Shown piece after piece: positions 57,273 through 64,000 of a DNA stretch of 64,000 nucleotides (position 1 is its first letter; each line of letters starts with the position of its first letter). The DNA is taken from NCBI GenBank assembly GCA_024404115.1, contig JAKSQM010000002.1, positions 227,104 through 291,103 on the forward strand. The letters are read 5' to 3'. Made by a program: the position numbers and the translations under genes. Below the pieces are notes generated by a model, which saw only the letters and a program-made list of their open reading frames with translations, ran no database searches and was not told the DNA's origin. The stretch is from Clostridia bacterium. Lineage in GTDB: Bacteria > Bacillota > Clostridia > Oscillospirales > Acutalibacteraceae.

Positions 57273-57554
57273 ATGAAAAATTACATTTACATAATAATTT
57301 ATTGGGTTGTTATCAGTCTAGTGGCGATTTTTTTCACAATTAAAGACAAAAATGCCGCCAAGAAACACCGCTGGAGAGTGCCTGAGGCGACGCTTATGCT
57401 TATTGGACTTTTTGGCGGAGCGGAAGCAATGTATCTGACAATGAAAAAGATAAGACACAAGACCCAGCATAAGAAATTTATGGTGGGTCTGCCCCTTGAA
57501 ATGGTGCTTCACGCACTGCTGATTGTGGCAATGTTTTGGGTATTGACAAATTAA
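57273..57554 (+). CDS. DUF1294 membrane protein
   Basis: A 93-residue protein with three helices and the DUF1294 signature: RVPEATLMLIGLFGGAEAMYLTMKKIRHKTQHKKFMVGLP. Function unknown across the family. GGAGGGC lies upstream of the ATG. The tRNA promoter at 57543 overlaps its last codons. Confidence 0.9.
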   Translation: MKNYIYIIIYWVVISLVAIFFTIKDKNAAKKHRWRVPEATLMLIGLFGGAEAMYLTMKKIRHKTQHKKFMVGLPLEMVLHALLIVAMFWVLTN

Positions 57555-57571
57555 AAATGCAGTAATATAAT
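57543..57571 (+). promoter_or_regulatory. Consensus tRNA promoter
   Basis: A perfect TTGACA and a perfect TATAAT are separated by 17 nt. The expected transcription start (~57578) falls right before the truncated tRNA-like sequence at 57583. Confidence 0.85.
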
Positions 57572-57582
57572 GTAAGTGCTTT

Positions 57583-57604
57583 GGGGGCGTAGCTCACCTG
57601 GGAG
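57583..57604 (+). pseudogene. Truncated tRNA-Ala 5' half
   Basis: GGGGGCGTAGCTCA followed by CCTGGGAG reads as the acceptor strand and D-arm of an alanine tRNA, sitting where a tRNA should begin after the promoter. No matching anticodon arm, T-arm or 3' acceptor strand follows. The next ~65 bp (57605-57671) are unrelated. I interpret it as a remnant left by recombination at this tRNA locus. Confidence 0.5.
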
Positions 57605-57671
57605 CCTGACAGGCACGGTTACACAACCCCATAAAACACAACCTAATAAAAAAATCTGACAGACTTGACAC

Positions 57672-57748
57672 GGGCTCGTAGCTCAGTTTGGGAGAGCGTA
57701 CGGTTCGCATCCGTAAGGTCGAGGGTTCGATCCCCTTCGGGTCCACCA
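57672..57748 (+). tRNA. tRNA-Ala (anticodon CGC)
   Basis: A full cloverleaf: acceptor GGGCTCG with CGGGTCC, including the alanine identity pair G3-U70. The D-arm is GCTC/GAGC, the anticodon stem TACGG/CCGTA with loop TTCGCAT (anticodon CGC, reading GCG), and the T-arm GAGGG-TTCGATC-CCCTT. The discriminator is A and CCA is encoded. A 10-bp TCTGACAGAC repeat flanks the gene (57655-57664 and 57752-57761). Confidence 0.95.
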
Positions 57749-57762
57749 CCGTCTGACAGACG

Positions 57763-57798
57763 AAAAGCAACCTGCTTCATTTGAGGCAGGTTGCTTTT
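57763..57798. terminator. Palindromic terminator, repeat copy 1
   Basis: A perfect 13-bp stem (AAAAGCAACCTGC/GCAGGTTGCTTTT) forms a terminator active in either direction, serving the tRNA on one side and the PIN-like gene on the other. Its inner 30 bp (57767-57796) are identical to 59957-59986. Confidence 0.85.
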
Positions 57799-57848: not shown

Positions 57849-59459
57849 TCAATCTAAATCTACTTCATAATATCTTGCATTTTCTTTTGCTTTTTCTAAT
57901 TTCTTGTAATAATGCTTCAATTTGATATTACCCAAAATTTTACTTAAAAATCCTATATTACCAAAAAACAAATCAATATTTGAAACTATTGATAAAATCA
58001 AAGAGGCTATCGATAAAAATTTAGAATGTATATCATAATTATTAACAAAGCCTATTACTGTATAATAAATTGAAAAAACAAATACACAAATAAATAATAT
58101 TCGAACAATCCATTTAATTGCATCAAACAATCTATTATTTTTATTTGTAATATCTTCTTGAATTTTTATCATTATACGTTCTTTTCTTTTACGTTTATCT
58201 TCGTCATCTAATTCCATTTTTTTCGTTAGATTAGATATAATTTCATTTTGAACTATAGTTTGAGATTTTTTTTGCTCATCTAAAATTTCAAAAATAGTAT
58301 TTTCTTCTAAGAAATCAGCATCACCATAAGTTCTGTTCATCAGTTCTTTTTTTGCAAATCTATCTAATCTAAGTATTGCGGCCTCTTCAACCGTTATTCC
58401 ACCTTCTTTTTCAAGTTTTTGCACTTTTTCATAAAACTGTTGAATAAGGCTTTCCGTAGGCTCTAAAGCAGAGATTGCATTTTCAATCAGTTGGTGTTTA
58501 GGGAAATCAATATTCGTCTTAAAATGTTTTATCCACATTATTGAAGCAATATCTTTTTCCGAAAAGAATAATTCAATTTCATTTTTGTTATCTGTACAAT
58601 AATAATTTACTGCTCTTACAAGGAAATCATTTGTAGTGATAAAAAAAGCGATACAATTTTCGATTTTCTTTGCTTTTTTACCATGCCTAAGATATTTTAC
58701 AGAAAAAGCTGTACTAATATCAGTTTCCAAATTAGGCTCTAAATAATTGGGCCTTAAATTCTTTATATACTCTTTTAATCCTAAATAATCAATTAACGCA
58801 TCGCCATTCTTTTTAATTTCTTCTTCATTTGATGGATAACTTGGTCTTTCTTCAATTGATATTCCTAACTTGTTGATTTTTTCCTCCAATGTGTTTATTA
58901 CATCATCAACATCGTCAACAGAATATTTGTTTATATCAAAAAACTCTAATGTTTTACAGCTTTTAAATTTACGTGGATTTTTAATATTATTCCTATATGC
59001 AATCAGAATACTTTTAACTTCTTCGTAATTATGAAAAAAACAACACAACTCAGCATTTGAATCTGTAAGCATTTTCAGAATCTCTAAAGAGCAGTTTTTG
59101 GACTCTTCTAATTTAAAGCCGAGAGCATAGATCAAAAATGTTGTATCTAAAAATACTTTTACATTTTTAAAATTAGATTTGTATAAATCATTATTATCTA
59201 TTTGTAAAGAGATTGCGTTTGAAACAAAGAAACCTTTGACCATATTTATTAAATAATCAAATTCTAAAGTTTCATCTTGACTGTTTTCAATAATAAACTG
59301 AGCAATAAAATAATCAATTTCATCATTGTTTCTTTTTAAACTATACAAATCAACTTTTTCAAACAGAACGGTCAGGCCATGGCTTTTAAAGAAAGAAATC
59401 AGTCTTTCATATACAAAAGAATCATTAAAATCGTATTTCTTTTTACAACGCTCTTTCAA
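57849..59459 (-). CDS. PIN-like nuclease-domain protein with C-terminal membrane anchor
   Basis: This 536-codon frame is AT-rich and lysine/asparagine-heavy, unlike the neighbours. A PIN-like core is suggested by NVKVFLDTTFLIYALGF (about 98-115, first Asp), NYEEVKSIL (about 148-156, Glu) and a later AFFITTNDFLVRA strand (about 275-287), the T-x-D position of PIN folds. A charged coiled-coil-like stretch (about 400-455) is followed by two hydrophobic helices (VRILFICVFVFSIYYTVIGFV and FLSIASLILSIV) and a basic tail. The TTG at 59459 has no ribosome site, and the frame is open back to 59520, so it is likely fused by frameshift to the upstream ORF. The nuclease call is by motif pattern only. Confidence 0.6.
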   Translation of the reverse strand: MKERCKKKYDFNDSFVYERLISFFKSHGLTVLFEKVDLYSLKRNNDEIDYFIAQFIIENSQDETLEFDYLINMVKGFFVSNAISLQIDNNDLYKSNFKNVKVFLDTTFLIYALGFKLEESKNCSLEILKMLTDSNAELCCFFHNYEEVKSILIAYRNNIKNPRKFKSCKTLEFFDINKYSVDDVDDVINTLEEKINKLGISIEERPSYPSNEEEIKKNGDALIDYLGLKEYIKNLRPNYLEPNLETDISTAFSVKYLRHGKKAKKIENCIAFFITTNDFLVRAVNYYCTDNKNEIELFFSEKDIASIMWIKHFKTNIDFPKHQLIENAISALEPTESLIQQFYEKVQKLEKEGGITVEEAAILRLDRFAKKELMNRTYGDADFLEENTIFEILDEQKKSQTIVQNEIISNLTKKMELDDEDKRKRKERIMIKIQEDITNKNNRLFDAIKWIVRILFICVFVFSIYYTVIGFVNNYDIHSKFLSIASLILSIVSNIDLFFGNIGFLSKILGNIKLKHYYKKLEKAKENARYYEVDLD

Positions 59460-59506
59460 AAAAACAGAAAGACTCTTTATTACCGTGTTTGATTCTTCTT
59501 TACATT

Positions 59507-59848
59507 TTAATTTTTTCTTTCAAAATCATGCACAAATGAATCCAAATTTTTTTGTAATATATATTTGTTTTTTTCTTTTTTTAAACATGATTTACATAAT
59601 CTATCACAAACTTTTAACGCAACCGCTAATGGAAATTCAGAATATCCGAATTCAGTTTTGAAAAAAGATATTGTTTTTTCTATATCAATTATATCACCAA
59701 GCGTGTTCACTTTATATATAGAATATTTAAAAAACGGCAATAACAATTCTATATTATCTTTCTGTTCTTTTTCCCAGAAAGTGGTAAGCATAGCAACACT
59801 TACTAAAAGATTTTTACTCATATAATTCATCACCAACCTTTTCGACAT
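59507..59848 (-). CDS. 113-codon ORF, probable 5' part of the PIN-like gene
   Basis: It has a near-ideal ribosome site (AAGGAGGTGAT) and ATG. The product is helical and charged: TFWEKEQKDNIELLLPFFKYSIYK, GYSEFPLAVALKVCDRLCKSCLKKE, ending SFVHDFERKN. No family was recognised. Just before the stop the RNA reads AGA AAA AAT; one -1 slip would continue as K-LKCKEESNTVIKSLSVFLKERC into the 536-codon frame, giving a protein of about 665 residues. Either a programmed frameshift, a broken gene, or two separate proteins. Confidence 0.6.
   Translation of the reverse strand: MSKRLVMNYMSKNLLVSVAMLTTFWEKEQKDNIELLLPFFKYSIYKVNTLGDIIDIEKTISFFKTEFGYSEFPLAVALKVCDRLCKSCLKKEKNKYILQKNLDSFVHDFERKN
59510..59516 (-). 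other. Candidate -1 slippery heptamer
   Basis: A AAA AAT in the reading frame of the 113-codon ORF, immediately before its TAA. It has the X-XXY-YYZ pattern and would shift ribosomes into the downstream frame, whose previous stop is at 59520-59522. No stimulatory stem is obvious in the AT-rich bases after it. Confidence 0.4.
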
Positions 59849-59956: not shown

Positions 59957-59986
59957 GCAACCTGCTTCATTTGAGGCAGGTTGCTT
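59957..59986 (-). terminator. Palindromic terminator, repeat copy 2
   Basis: Identical over 30 bp to 57767-57796. It lies 8 bp after the recombinase stop and is a plausible terminator for it, although only TT follows on the minus side within the repeat copy. The two copies bracket the AT-rich PIN-like segment. Confidence 0.7.
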
Positions 59987-59994
59987 AATTTATA

Positions 59995-61602
59995 TCAGCT
60001 TGCTTTTAACGGTTCGCAATCTATGCCGTTCATAAACTGCTGTAAATCAAAGCTGAATTCAATATTTAATTTATAATCACGGAACACTTCAATCCTTTTA
60101 ATCATACTGTTTACAATCATTTTCTTCGCTTCGTGGCTTGCCGTTTCATACAGCTCCGCCCACGAAATCAACTTGTCATATTTGTCAAACAACTCGTCGA
60201 GAAGCTGTTCCTCATTTTTTAATTCAGCTTCAGCGGCATTGCAGACTTCTTTAAGTTTACTGCCTTTTTCTTCGGACTGCGTAATAAGTTCTGATAAAAC
60301 GGAGCTCGAAAAATCGCTTTCACCCTGCAGGCATTTAATAATTTCCGCTTTTAACATATTCAGCTTTTTAAGTTCTTTATTATATTCTGCTTGTGCATCA
60401 GTAAGGTTTTGTTTAATTTCAGAAAGCTCTTTTTCATAGCGAACCGAAACAATGCTGCTTTTGGGAACACCCTGCATTTTCGTAAAGACATCCTTAATTA
60501 TCTGATCAATAACTCCATCCAGTTTTGCCATACTATAAGTTGTTTGCCCCTCGCAGACTGACAGTTTTCTTGATTTTCTGTAACAGGTATAATGGATTGT
60601 TACTTTCCTTGTTACTGTTCCGTCGGCTCTACGATACTTTTTTGTATGAGATGTCAGATGAAGCCTTGAACCACAGTGACCGCAGAACACATTACCCGAA
60701 AGCAGAGACATTCCTTTCATATTTATCGGCGGACGAGATTGTTCTGCTTTTGCTTTGCTTCTCTGCTGACGAATCTGATTTGCTTCTTTAAAAATTTTAT
60801 CAGACACTATCTGAAGTTCAGGCAGATAAGGCGAAACGGTTTCACCGCTTTTTAGATAACCAATATATATTCTGTTCTGAATGATATTCCGGATAGAATT
60901 GTGAGACCATTTTTCAAGCTTTCTCGGTTTTAATCCCTTTTCGGTCAGGTAATTTGCAATAGCTTGAAATCCGAGACCTTCAGAAACATATTTATCGAAA
61001 ATCAATCTCACAACAGCGGCTTCATTCTCATTTATTTTCAAATCATAAAGCTCATGCCTTTTTTTATTGAAGCGTCCGCTTTTAACAAGGTCATATCCAA
61101 AGGCGGGGTTACCGCCTTTGAAATGACCTTCCTCAACCATCTGACCGAGGCTTGTTTTTGTACGGATTGAGGTTTTCTCGCTTTCACCGTCTGCCTGCCA
61201 AAAGCGGATATAGTTTAGGAGCTTATCAATATGGTTATCAAAACGCTGTTCGCCCTCCTGTGTACTCCAAACCTCAATACCGTTTTTTACAAACCATTCA
61301 ACAACAAATGGTGTTTCGTCTGCAATTCTGCCGATACGGTCAAACATAAATACGAGCAGAATATCAAACTGCTTTTTCCTTGCAAGCTCTTTTATGATTT
61401 GAACTTTGTCACGGTTTTCAGCTCTGACCTTGTGTCCTGAAACGCCATCCTCCTGTTCTTCGTGAACAATCTCCCAACCCATCTGCTCGGCAAATTTGTG
61501 GCAGGCTTTACGCTGCATAGGTATATCAGCTTCGTGATTACTGTCGTAATCAACCTGCTTATCTGTAGAAACTCTGTAAAGACAGCATACTCGTTTTGCC
61601 AT
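59995..61602 (-). CDS. Large serine recombinase
   Basis: A 535-residue site-specific recombinase. The resolvase-type catalytic domain (about 1-150) has the nucleophile S12 in CLYRVSTDKQ, plus HEEQEDGVSG and FDILLVFMFDRIGR. The recombinase domain (about 170-270) has GLGFQAIANYLTEKG and WSHNSIRNIIQNRIYIG. A zinc ribbon (FCGHCGSRLHL ... CYRKSRKLSVCEG) and a coiled-coil C-terminus follow. Such enzymes integrate and excise phages, ICEs and mobilizable elements. The ATG overlaps the stop of the 78-residue gene (TGATG), with AAGGAGG upstream. Confidence 0.95.
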   Translation of the reverse strand: MAKRVCCLYRVSTDKQVDYDSNHEADIPMQRKACHKFAEQMGWEIVHEEQEDGVSGHKVRAENRDKVQIIKELARKKQFDILLVFMFDRIGRIADETPFVVEWFVKNGIEVWSTQEGEQRFDNHIDKLLNYIRFWQADGESEKTSIRTKTSLGQMVEEGHFKGGNPAFGYDLVKSGRFNKKRHELYDLKINENEAAVVRLIFDKYVSEGLGFQAIANYLTEKGLKPRKLEKWSHNSIRNIIQNRIYIGYLKSGETVSPYLPELQIVSDKIFKEANQIRQQRSKAKAEQSRPPINMKGMSLLSGNVFCGHCGSRLHLTSHTKKYRRADGTVTRKVTIHYTCYRKSRKLSVCEGQTTYSMAKLDGVIDQIIKDVFTKMQGVPKSSIVSVRYEKELSEIKQNLTDAQAEYNKELKKLNMLKAEIIKCLQGESDFSSSVLSELITQSEEKGSKLKEVCNAAEAELKNEEQLLDELFDKYDKLISWAELYETASHEAKKMIVNSMIKRIEVFRDYKLNIEFSFDLQQFMNGIDCEPLKAS

Positions 61603-61842: not shown

Positions 61843-62679
61843 TCACCTCGCATCTCTGTTACGCTGACGCTTGAGAAACTTAGCGTAGTGGTCGCAAGCC
61901 TTAATGATAAATTCCTCTGCCTGCTTCGGCGAGGTATCGGGCTTGATAAATTGCGACAGCCTTTCAGCCGAAACCTTATACACAGGTCTTTGATTCGGCT
62001 TGTCAGTAGACATCATTTCCGCAATGCTGTCATCTGATAACATGCCGGAAAGAAAATTCTTATGCATACGATTTGCCTGTGCGTATGACGGAGTGCAGTC
62101 AAGTTCTTCAATCAAGCCGAGAAGAACATACTGTTTTTCTTCGTCAAGGTAGGATAATTCCACACCTACCGAAAAGGCAATTTTGCCCTCATCAATTAAA
62201 TTCAGCAGTTCGAGAATAAGGTTTGTCAGACGGATATATCTGTGAATTTGACGTTCACTGTCATTGGATGCTTCACTGATTTGCGATACGCTCCACTTCT
62301 CGCCAACTTGGCGAGAAGTACCCTGATGCGATAAAGCTTCCATTTTCAGCTTGTACCCAAACGCCTTTTCGCTCGGCAGGATATCTCTTGAACAGATATT
62401 GTTGTCAACGATTGCGATAATCATTTTGTCTTTGTCCATATCATGAACAACGGCAGGCACTGTTTTCAGCCCTGCCGTTTTCGCTGCTTCAAATCTTCTC
62501 TGACCTGAAACAATGATATATCCGCCTTCGTCTTTGTCGGGACATACGATTAAAGGCTCATATATCCCGTCAATTGAAATGCTTTCAATAAGACTATCGA
62601 AGGCATCATCTTTTCGCACCTTAAATGGATTTTCACGGAACAGGTGCAGCTCCGTGATGTTGATTTCTGTAATTTTCAT
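61843..62679 (-). CDS. ParB/RepB/Spo0J-type protein
   Basis: A 278-residue protein. The ParB N-terminal nuclease-like/CTP domain is about 1-100, with LHLFRENPFKVR, PLIVCPDKDEGGYIIVSGQRRFEAAKTAGL and AIVDNNICSRDILPSEKAFGYKLKMEAL. A central helix-turn-helix is about 128-150 (WSVSQISEASNDSERQIHRYIRL). No ParA ATPase is next to it, as is common in Clostridial integrative elements where the protein may act in element maintenance or relaxosome function rather than partition. AGGAGA precedes the ATG. Confidence 0.9.
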   Translation of the reverse strand: MKITEINITELHLFRENPFKVRKDDAFDSLIESISIDGIYEPLIVCPDKDEGGYIIVSGQRRFEAAKTAGLKTVPAVVHDMDKDKMIIAIVDNNICSRDILPSEKAFGYKLKMEALSHQGTSRQVGEKWSVSQISEASNDSERQIHRYIRLTNLILELLNLIDEGKIAFSVGVELSYLDEEKQYVLLGLIEELDCTPSYAQANRMHKNFLSGMLSDDSIAEMMSTDKPNQRPVYKVSAERLSQFIKPDTSPKQAEEFIIKACDHYAKFLKRQRNRDAR

Positions 62680-62708: not shown

Positions 62709-64000
62709 TTATCTTGCCCCTCTGTCTTTGCGGGGCGCTTTTGGTGGTGTTGGGATATTAACGCGTGTCGGGAAATACCATTCACGCATGTGCTGTTTTT
62801 CTTCATTGGTTTTTGCTTCAAGGTCAGGTCTGTCGGAAATAATCCGCTTTGCAATATTCAGATCGTTTCTTTTTTCTGTGATTATTCCCGTCAGCCTGCT
62901 CCTCTGAGCAATGAGCTTTTCTTTCAGTTCGGGATCGGTACATCGGCGTATTCTGTTGTAAATTTTACCTCGTTCATATTTCAGTTCTTCAAGCTCTGCA
63001 CCGGTTTTTATGATGAATTTTTCAACATCGTCAAAGGTATATAGTTTTTTATTAAGTGCCAAATCCATCTGCTTTGACATAAACTCCATCCTCGGCTGAG
63101 ATAACCTCATCGCCGGTGATTTCGGGTGCAGAGTTTTGTTGTGTTCGTTAAGCAGAACGCCTGCAAATAACATACCGAGAAACAATAAAGCGATAACAGG
63201 ACATCCTGAAAGGACGCATCCCGTTATCGCTTTTACTGTGTATTCCAATGTTCGGTCAAACTCATATTTGCTTTCATAGGTGTACTTTGATTCGTAAAAT
63301 TCAGCATCCTTAAAACGGAATGTCATGAATTCATCACGGAGAAAATTGTTGTGTGAATTGTTTGAATAGAAGCTGTTCCATATCCTGCTTTTATCATTGC
63401 ATTTTATTCGGTATCGGATAGCGGCAGGGGTATATTTTTCTCCTAAATTCACAAGCCGTATGCCGTGTTCATCACTCCGATGGCGTATAGTTGCATATCT
63501 GTTTTGGTCATAAAAGTTATCAAAAATATAACCCTTGTGTATTAACTCTGCGAGAAAGTATTTTTCATCAGGGCAATGTGTAATTGCAGAATCAATGTCT
63601 TCACGAATATAGTCATACTTTGTTTTTATGCCCTTTTGCTGAGCCTTGTAAACATTGTACGGCACCCGTTTGCCTCTCGGATTTTCGATAACAGATAAAC
63701 CGTATTCAAGACATTTTTTATCAGAAATTTCACGGAACTTTTGGTACATTGCTTTGTTTTCATTCATCTTTCTTCCGTCTGTCATTGATACCGAATTGAT
63801 AACAATATGACAGTGAACACAGCGGGCGTTCATGTGGGTTGCGACTACGATTTCGTAATCATCGCCCCACATTTTATCTGCAATTTCCATTGCAATTTTC
63901 TGTGCCTGCTTCGGTTCAACCTCGTCGGGTTTAAAAGAAATATATCCGTGATAAGCAACTATTCCGTCTGTCTTTCCGTACAGTTCTTTGGTGTTCATCA
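62709..64000 (-). CDS. MobA/VirD2-type relaxase, 5' end outside the window
   Basis: At least 429 residues are visible and the reading frame is open to the window edge, so the N-terminal part (with the expected catalytic Tyr) is missing. The metal-binding histidines H55, H62 and H64 of the visible part (ATHMNARCVHCHIVIN) define the relaxase. It nicks the element's oriT and pilots single-stranded DNA. A hydrophobic stretch at about 245-275 (VLSGCPVIALLFLGMLFAGVLL) could be a membrane helix, uncommon in relaxases. A charged helical C-terminus ends in a Pro-rich basic tail. Confidence 0.9.
   Translation of the reverse strand, partial: MNTKELYGKTDGIVAYHGYISFKPDEVEPKQAQKIAMEIADKMWGDDYEIVVATHMNARCVHCHIVINSVSMTDGRKMNENKAMYQKFREISDKKCLEYGLSVIENPRGKRVPYNVYKAQQKGIKTKYDYIREDIDSAITHCPDEKYFLAELIHKGYIFDNFYDQNRYATIRHRSDEHGIRLVNLGEKYTPAAIRYRIKCNDKSRIWNSFYSNNSHNNFLRDEFMTFRFKDAEFYESKYTYESKYEFDRTLEYTVKAITGCVLSGCPVIALLFLGMLFAGVLLNEHNKTLHPKSPAMRLSQPRMEFMSKQMDLALNKKLYTFDDVEKFIIKTGAELEELKYERGKIYNRIRRCTDPELKEKLIAQRSRLTGIITEKRNDLNIAKRIISDRPDLEAKTNEEKQHMREWYFPTRVNIPTPPKAPRKDRGAR

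What the first reader, a model, noticed from the sequence alone, without database searches (positions are those of the whole stretch)
57849..59848. AT-rich cargo encoding a PIN-like, membrane-anchored protein on a mobile element
Seen: a 2-kb segment much richer in A+T and Lys/Asn codons than both flanks. It holds a helical 113-codon ORF and a 536-codon ORF with a PIN-like pattern (VFLDTTFLIYAL, an acidic EEV helix, an FITTND strand), a charged coiled-coil-like region and two C-terminal helices. It lies between a serine recombinase and a tRNA gene. Established: PIN folds are RNases found in toxins and defence genes, and element ends often carry defence cargo. Inference: a membrane-tethered RNase effector with a fused helical sensor, possibly anti-phage.
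Basis: partly seen in the sequence, partly recalled or inferred. Interest (0 to 1): 0.75.

Follow-up and report, generated by a model that had tools for sequence, protein, structure and literature searches.

The report
Membrane-anchored PIN RNase on mobile DNA
A stretch of foreign-looking DNA at the end of a mobile element carries a gene, cut in two by a frame change, for a membrane-anchored enzyme of the PIN type that probably cuts RNA when a virus attacks the cell; several relatives sit beside known anti-virus genes.

Summary
The segment (25.2% G+C, window 41.1%) holds two minus-strand ORFs that are pieces of ONE gene: a family profile built without the window matches ORF-a at positions 5-98 and ORF-b at 104-653. 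Relatives are single ORFs of 607-720 aa. The window copy is out of frame (decay, phase variation or assembly slip).

Of 18 distinct relatives, 6 lie beside or inside recognised defence loci (two in type I restriction operons); the 2 E. coli copies found at DNA level (of 5,426 genomes) are cargo of P2-like prophages. In the window the gene fills a slot between tRNA-Ala and serine recombinase that is empty or differently filled in three same-genus genomes.

Best reading: single-gene, auto-inhibited, membrane-tethered RNase effector of anti-phage defence. Function is inferred, untested. New variant of a known kind.

The parts
59507..59848 (-). ORF-a: N-terminal piece of the gene (113 codons), with a strong ribosome-binding site
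   Evidence: family profile positions 5-98
59537..59824 (-). winged-helix-like N-terminal domain (ORF-a residues 9-104; by homology to about residues 25-104 of L077)
   Evidence: profile match; model of the intact relative L077
57849..59459 (-). ORF-b: PIN, long helix and TM part of the gene (536 codons from a TTG); the open frame reaches back to about 59519
58554..59165 (-). PIN (VapC-like) domain, ORF-b residues 99-302; conserved D105, E147, D247, T275, N277
58041..58304 (-). long helix, coiled-coil-like at first, running into the first TM segment (ORF-b residues 386-473 in the model)
   Evidence: low-confidence model
58044..58100 (-). first TM-like segment (ORF-b 454-472)
   Evidence: hydropathy 2.52
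57963..58019 (-). second TM-like segment (ORF-b 481-499)
   Evidence: hydropathy 1.97
59507..59520 (-). A-rich stretch where the reading frame changes between the two pieces
57767..57796 (+). 30-bp repeat, left copy: hairpin/terminator behind the tRNA
59957..59986 (+). 30-bp repeat, right copy: identical hairpin before the recombinase end
57672..57748 (+). intact tRNA-Ala (CGC) at the element end
57583..57604 (+). 5' fragment of a second tRNA-Ala, behind a TTGACA-17-TATAAT promoter (57543-57571)
59995..61602 (-). large serine recombinase of the mobile element
61843..62679 (-). ParB-like protein of the element

Best explanation
The segment is accessory cargo of an integrative mobile element and encodes one protein, here interrupted: winged helix, helical linker, VapC-like PIN nuclease, long coiled-coil-like helix, two C-terminal membrane helices. 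Intact members most likely act as single-gene anti-phage effectors. Anchored to the inner membrane and held inactive by their own N-terminal or helical parts (no antitoxin gene was recognised beside them), they are released by some consequence of infection and cut RNA, probably tRNA as VapC toxins do, stopping translation in the infected cell. Shown here: one gene in two pieces, predicted PIN fold, conserved active-site pattern, TM segments, mobile or defence context. Inferred: RNase activity, tRNA target, auto-inhibition, trigger, abortive outcome.
For: PIN fold for the relative and for ORF-b. hhalign of the PIN core (A8, 16 proteins; L008 and L013 left out) with nine PIN_3 proteins (one of ten matches dropped for a stop): 36.8, E 6.2e-5, against at most 18.9 in 80 column shuffles and 11.7 reversed. 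D, E, D, T, N kept in 16 of 18. Pfam: PIN_3 in 2 of 7 whole proteins, best E 5.9e-4; PIN_12 in 3 and PIN_3 in 2 of the 16 cores. TM pair in 17 of 18. Defence neighbours in 6 of 18 distinct relatives: L076 between hsdS and hsdR, L031 71 bp after hsdR; L007 CBASS, L016 type III RM, L028 NsnA/PD-T4-2_A-like GmrSD plus HEPN, L030 Eco57I methylase plus ResIII. Both E. coli copies found are prophage cargo, L015 between tail sheath and tail-fibre assembly of a P2-like prophage; Vassallo et al. report a second P2 defence locus that holds fun (PMC9519451, passages; that fun lies between these genes is recalled). PIN proteins DS-3 and DS-5 defend E. coli and need their catalytic residues (PMC13092281, passages).
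Against: No activity has been measured. No PADLOC-DB model matches. The window copy is split by a frame change and may be inactive. The models rest on four sequences (mean pLDDT 68.7 and 53.8). Two of 18 aligned proteins (L008, L013) lose part of the catalytic set. In 12 of 18 relatives no defence system was recognised in the stretch viewed; near L075 nothing defence- or mobility-like was seen, near L029 only an HNH nuclease (by eye). No matched control for the neighbourhood counts was run, and 7 of the 18 come from a plasmid-only collection.
Confidence: 0.66

Rival explanations
1. Element-stabilising toxin: a PIN toxin that kills or slows cells which lose the plasmid or element, or that excludes competing elements, rather than phage defence.
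For: 7 of 18 distinct relatives are on plasmids (a plasmid-only collection); the fold is that of VapC addiction toxins.
Against: No second ORF of 60 aa or more, other than ones overlapping the gene on the opposite strand, lies in the window cassette (shorter antitoxins are not excluded), and in L015 the gene is the only annotated one in its prophage slot. Placement inside and beside restriction, CBASS and GmrSD loci is not expected of a plasmid addiction gene. Membrane anchoring and a winged helix are unusual for VapC (recalled).
Confidence: 0.15
2. Guard of restriction systems: the nuclease fires when a phage disables the neighbouring restriction-modification system, as PrrC does beside EcoprrI (recalled).
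For: Two copies in type I RM operons: L076 between hsdS and hsdR (longest ORF overlaps hsdS by 13 nt, its ATG by 1 nt) and L031 directly after hsdR; RM genes near L016 and L030.
Against: In 14 of 18 relatives, and for the window copy, no RM system was recognised in the stretch viewed (by annotation, eye or the scans), so RM cannot be the general trigger unless it lies elsewhere in the genome.
Confidence: 0.2
3. Dead or dying cargo: the window copy is a pseudogene that the element carries only in passing.
For: ORF-a and ORF-b are in different frames; the copy in G722 is in two pieces with stops, that in G762 covers only profile positions 360-631.
Against: Except for the frame change both pieces are open, and ORF-b keeps all five signature residues; an assembly slip at an A-run would look the same.
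Confidence: 0.45

Closest known systems
VapC (type II toxin-antitoxin PIN toxins)
   Same: best structural matches of both models (3zvk, 5ecd, 3tnd); conserved D and E pair in the profile alignment with PIN_3 proteins
   Different: about 650 aa instead of about 130; PIN embedded between a winged helix and a long-helix/TM tail; no adjacent antitoxin recognised
DS-3 of DefensePredictor (PMC13092281)
   Same: single-protein PIN defence system without antitoxin, suggested by its authors to be auto-inhibited (passages)
   Different: described as a PIN split between N and C terminus; here the PIN lies at about residues 220-415 of 655.
DS-5 of DefensePredictor (PMC13092281)
   Same: PIN-based anti-phage system
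   Different: two genes, the second with DUF5830 and an AcrIF4-like domain (passages)
PrrC anticodon nuclease (recalled)
   Same: RNase gene embedded in a type I RM operon, as for two relatives here
   Different: PrrC carries an ABC-type ATPase and is not a PIN protein (recalled); no ATPase domain matched here
P2 fun and other genes of P2-like prophage slots
   Same: similar prophage slot for L015
   Different: no sequence comparison with fun was made

Membership tests
PIN domain superfamily | PIN (VapC-like alpha/beta/alpha) fold | tested here: met
PIN domain superfamily | conserved acidic active-site set | tested here: met
   D-E-D and TxN in 16 of 18 aligned proteins including the window; L008 and L013 lack part
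PIN domain superfamily | curated sequence model above its cut-off | tested here: inconclusive
   only weak Pfam matches in relatives (PIN_3 best E 5.9e-4 in 2 of 7; PIN_12 best 0.0072 in 3 of 16), none for the window ORF
PIN domain superfamily | metal-dependent RNase activity | not testable with these tools
   needs biochemistry
VapBC toxin-antitoxin | small toxin encoded next to a VapB antitoxin | tested here: not met
   relatives are 607-720 aa; no second non-overlapping ORF of 60 aa or more in the window cassette
DefensePredictor DS-3 | PIN split between N and C terminus of a single protein | tested here: inconclusive
   PIN lies in the middle here; DS-3 sequence not held
PrrC/RloC anticodon nucleases | ABC-type ATPase domain | tested here: not met
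   no such family among Pfam matches of 7 members at E up to 1
known PADLOC defence protein | match to a PADLOC-DB 2.0.0 model | tested here: not met
   none for either window ORF at E up to 10; in 7 members only two matches, E 0.0092 and 0.012, one member each
membrane-anchored effector | conserved TM segments | tested here: met
   two C-terminal ones in 17 of 18, one in L013, by hydropathy only

The most novel reading that the evidence does not exclude
A widespread, unnamed class of membrane-tethered PIN tRNA nucleases that work as one-gene guards: the winged helix and long helix keep the PIN domain off at the membrane until infection (a disabled restriction system, or an altered membrane or nucleoid) releases it. 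In type I RM operons the gene has been captured as the back-up effector, a role that PrrC fills with an unrelated nuclease.
Probability: 0.3. Interest if true: 0.72.

Novelty: new variant of a known kind. Interest (0 to 1): 0.56.

Why it matters
It would add a membrane-anchored, single-gene PIN effector with its own DNA-binding-like domain to bacterial immunity. Members were seen in Bacillota (Enterococcus, Sporosarcina), Enterobacterales, Bacteroidota (Hymenobacter) and Actinomycetota (Arthrobacter). It would also give a second nuclease type, beside PrrC, built into type I restriction operons. The intact E. coli prophage copies make it directly testable in laboratory strains. The finding also shows that the end of this tRNA-Ala-associated element is a slot for swappable cargo.

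Tried and rejected
Two separate genes (a helical protein plus a PIN protein): rejected, because the family profile runs across both ORFs without overlap.

Programmed frameshifting: the stretch near 59507-59519 is A-rich, but relatives are single ORFs and the downstream RNA fold is ordinary (z -1.02). Kept only as a remote option.

Sequence search of the PDB with the profiles found nothing significant (best E 0.33, 0.22). No match in the phage collection with ORF-b or the Klebsiella relative. Pattern scans with ORF-b gave no relative in genome contigs or viral contigs; alignments gave 2 genome loci, 1 viral locus and none. PIN_12 was not found in 60 related genomes.

A tRNA pattern search meant to find the element's other end was written with one position too many and is uninformative. 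My first idea that the L015 slot is the hotspot of Rousset et al. was wrong: theirs lies by the cos site (PMC9122126, passages); the likelier match is the second P2 locus in PMC9519451 (passages). Plain Foldseek could not be run.

Rows left out of counts: fragmentary copies G628 (at a contig end), G722, G762 and the 90-residue match in G140 are not among the 18 relatives; Arthrobacter L006 is among the 18 relatives but not in the 18-protein alignment (17 relatives plus ORF-b); L008 and L013 were left out of A8; one of ten PIN_3 matches was dropped.

Full report
WHAT IS THERE. The window holds two minus-strand ORFs at the stated coordinates in a segment of 25.2% G+C; the window average is 41.1%, and the lowest 2,160-bp stretch left of 55.6 kb is 37.9%. 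On the left lies a tRNA-Ala(CGC), on the right a large serine recombinase and a ParB-like protein. By eye, a relaxase-like ORF follows at 62709-63998. The contig ends with the window, so the rest of the element is not seen.

ONE GENE IN TWO PIECES. A profile built from 17 relatives, without the window, matches ORF-a at positions 5-98 and the open frame of ORF-b at 104-653. The relatives are single ORFs of 607-720 aa; L003, the nearest one (32-36% identity), lacks about the first 75 residues. ORF-a has a strong ribosome-binding site; ORF-b has only a TTG without an evident one. So the window copy is out of frame near 59507-59519. Whether this is decay, phase variation or an assembly slip cannot be told from one assembly; the genome is 83.8% complete in 44 contigs.

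WHERE RELATIVES LIVE. The family is rare: matches in 3 of 198 relatives (one a 90-residue partial match), 3 of 391 genomes of the class and 8 of 398 of the phylum, own genome included each time; none of the 17 other genomes of the genus has it. It occurs on 12 plasmid records in two searches together, in 2 of 5,426 E. coli genomes by a DNA search with the Klebsiella gene, which could miss distant copies, and in no record of the phage collection. Counting the six E. faecium plasmids as one (four of six viewed) and L077 with L014, there are 18 distinct relatives. Known defence genes lie next door in 6 of 18: CBASS (L007), type III RM (L016), a GmrSD-like NsnA/PD-T4-2_A relative plus HEPN (L028), Eco57I methylase plus ResIII (L030), and type I RM in L031 (71 bp after hsdR) and L076 (between hsdS and hsdR). 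L014 (a remnant) and L015 are in P2-like prophages. By eye only: tyrosine integrases near L035 and L037, ParA/ParB genes beside L036. L075 shows no such neighbour, L029 only an HNH nuclease. Neighbours of the other plasmid copies were read from annotation, not scanned. No matched control was run, so the enrichment is not quantified.

THE SLOT. Same-genus genomes G008, G012 and G014 carry the same kind of recombinase (65, 64 and 63% identical) with its 3' end facing a tRNA-Ala. Between tRNA and recombinase G008 has about 55 bp and no gene, G012 a 167-aa ORF, G014 a 187-aa ORF (neither has a Pfam match above cut-off), and the window the PIN gene. The window cargo is bounded by two identical 30-bp hairpins (57767-57796, 59957-59986); their 24-bp core occurs nowhere else in the genome with up to two mismatches. 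This is a variable cargo slot at an element end.

HOW IT MAY WORK. Inferred: the PIN domain is the effector, the membrane tail places it, and the winged helix and long helix sense or restrain. No antitoxin gene was recognised with it, which argues for auto-inhibition, as the authors of DefensePredictor suggest for DS-3 (PMC13092281, passages). tRNA is the likeliest target because VapC enzymes cut tRNA (same passage).

NOVELTY. PIN-based defence is already in print (DS-3, DS-5), so this is not a new kind. The combination winged helix, PIN, long helix and two TM segments, and its place inside type I RM operons, was not found in my searches (none of six accessions found); these cover an open-access library only. 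Payne et al. 2024 and Brenes and Laub 2025 were not held and may contain members. What I saw of papers: PMC13092281 passages, its section 15 and part 1 of 3 of section 14; PMC9519451 and PMC9122126 passages; PMC10270631 one passage, in its reference list; the rest only as search listings.

Noticed in passing
window 57543-57748; L065, L066, L067, L069: A consensus promoter drives a 5' fragment of tRNA-Ala followed 67 bp later by an intact tRNA-Ala. A similar fragment-plus-intact pair stands before the related recombinase in G008, G012 and G014, while in G005 a tRNA-Ala(CGC) follows a DUF1294-like gene directly, with too little room for a fragment. The element seems to break a tRNA-Ala and to bring an intact copy at its own end (CGC here, GGC in the other three). 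The other element end was not found.
   Followed up: partly
window 57767-57796 and 59957-59986: Identical 30-bp hairpins flank the cargo; G008, without cargo, has a single (different) hairpin at this place, as if cargo had entered a terminator and doubled it.
   Followed up: partly
L065:2176-2679, L066:3764-4327: Other small genes of unknown function (167 and 187 aa) occupy the same slot in G012 and G014; they may be defence or counter-defence cargo too.
   Followed up: partly
L008:6671-8680, L013:1348-3291: A divergent branch of the family keeps the glutamate but lacks other signature residues (L013 has G for the first D), possibly non-catalytic members.
   Followed up: no
L034 (G722), L033 (G762): The copy in G722 is in two pieces with several stops and that in G762 covers only the C-terminal half of the profile, which suggests decay in some lineages.
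   Followed up: no
L016:1-17488: Around the Hymenobacter relative lie annotated TIR, AAA ATPase, type III RM, CHAT-domain and TerB-family genes, a dense possible defence island.
   Followed up: partly
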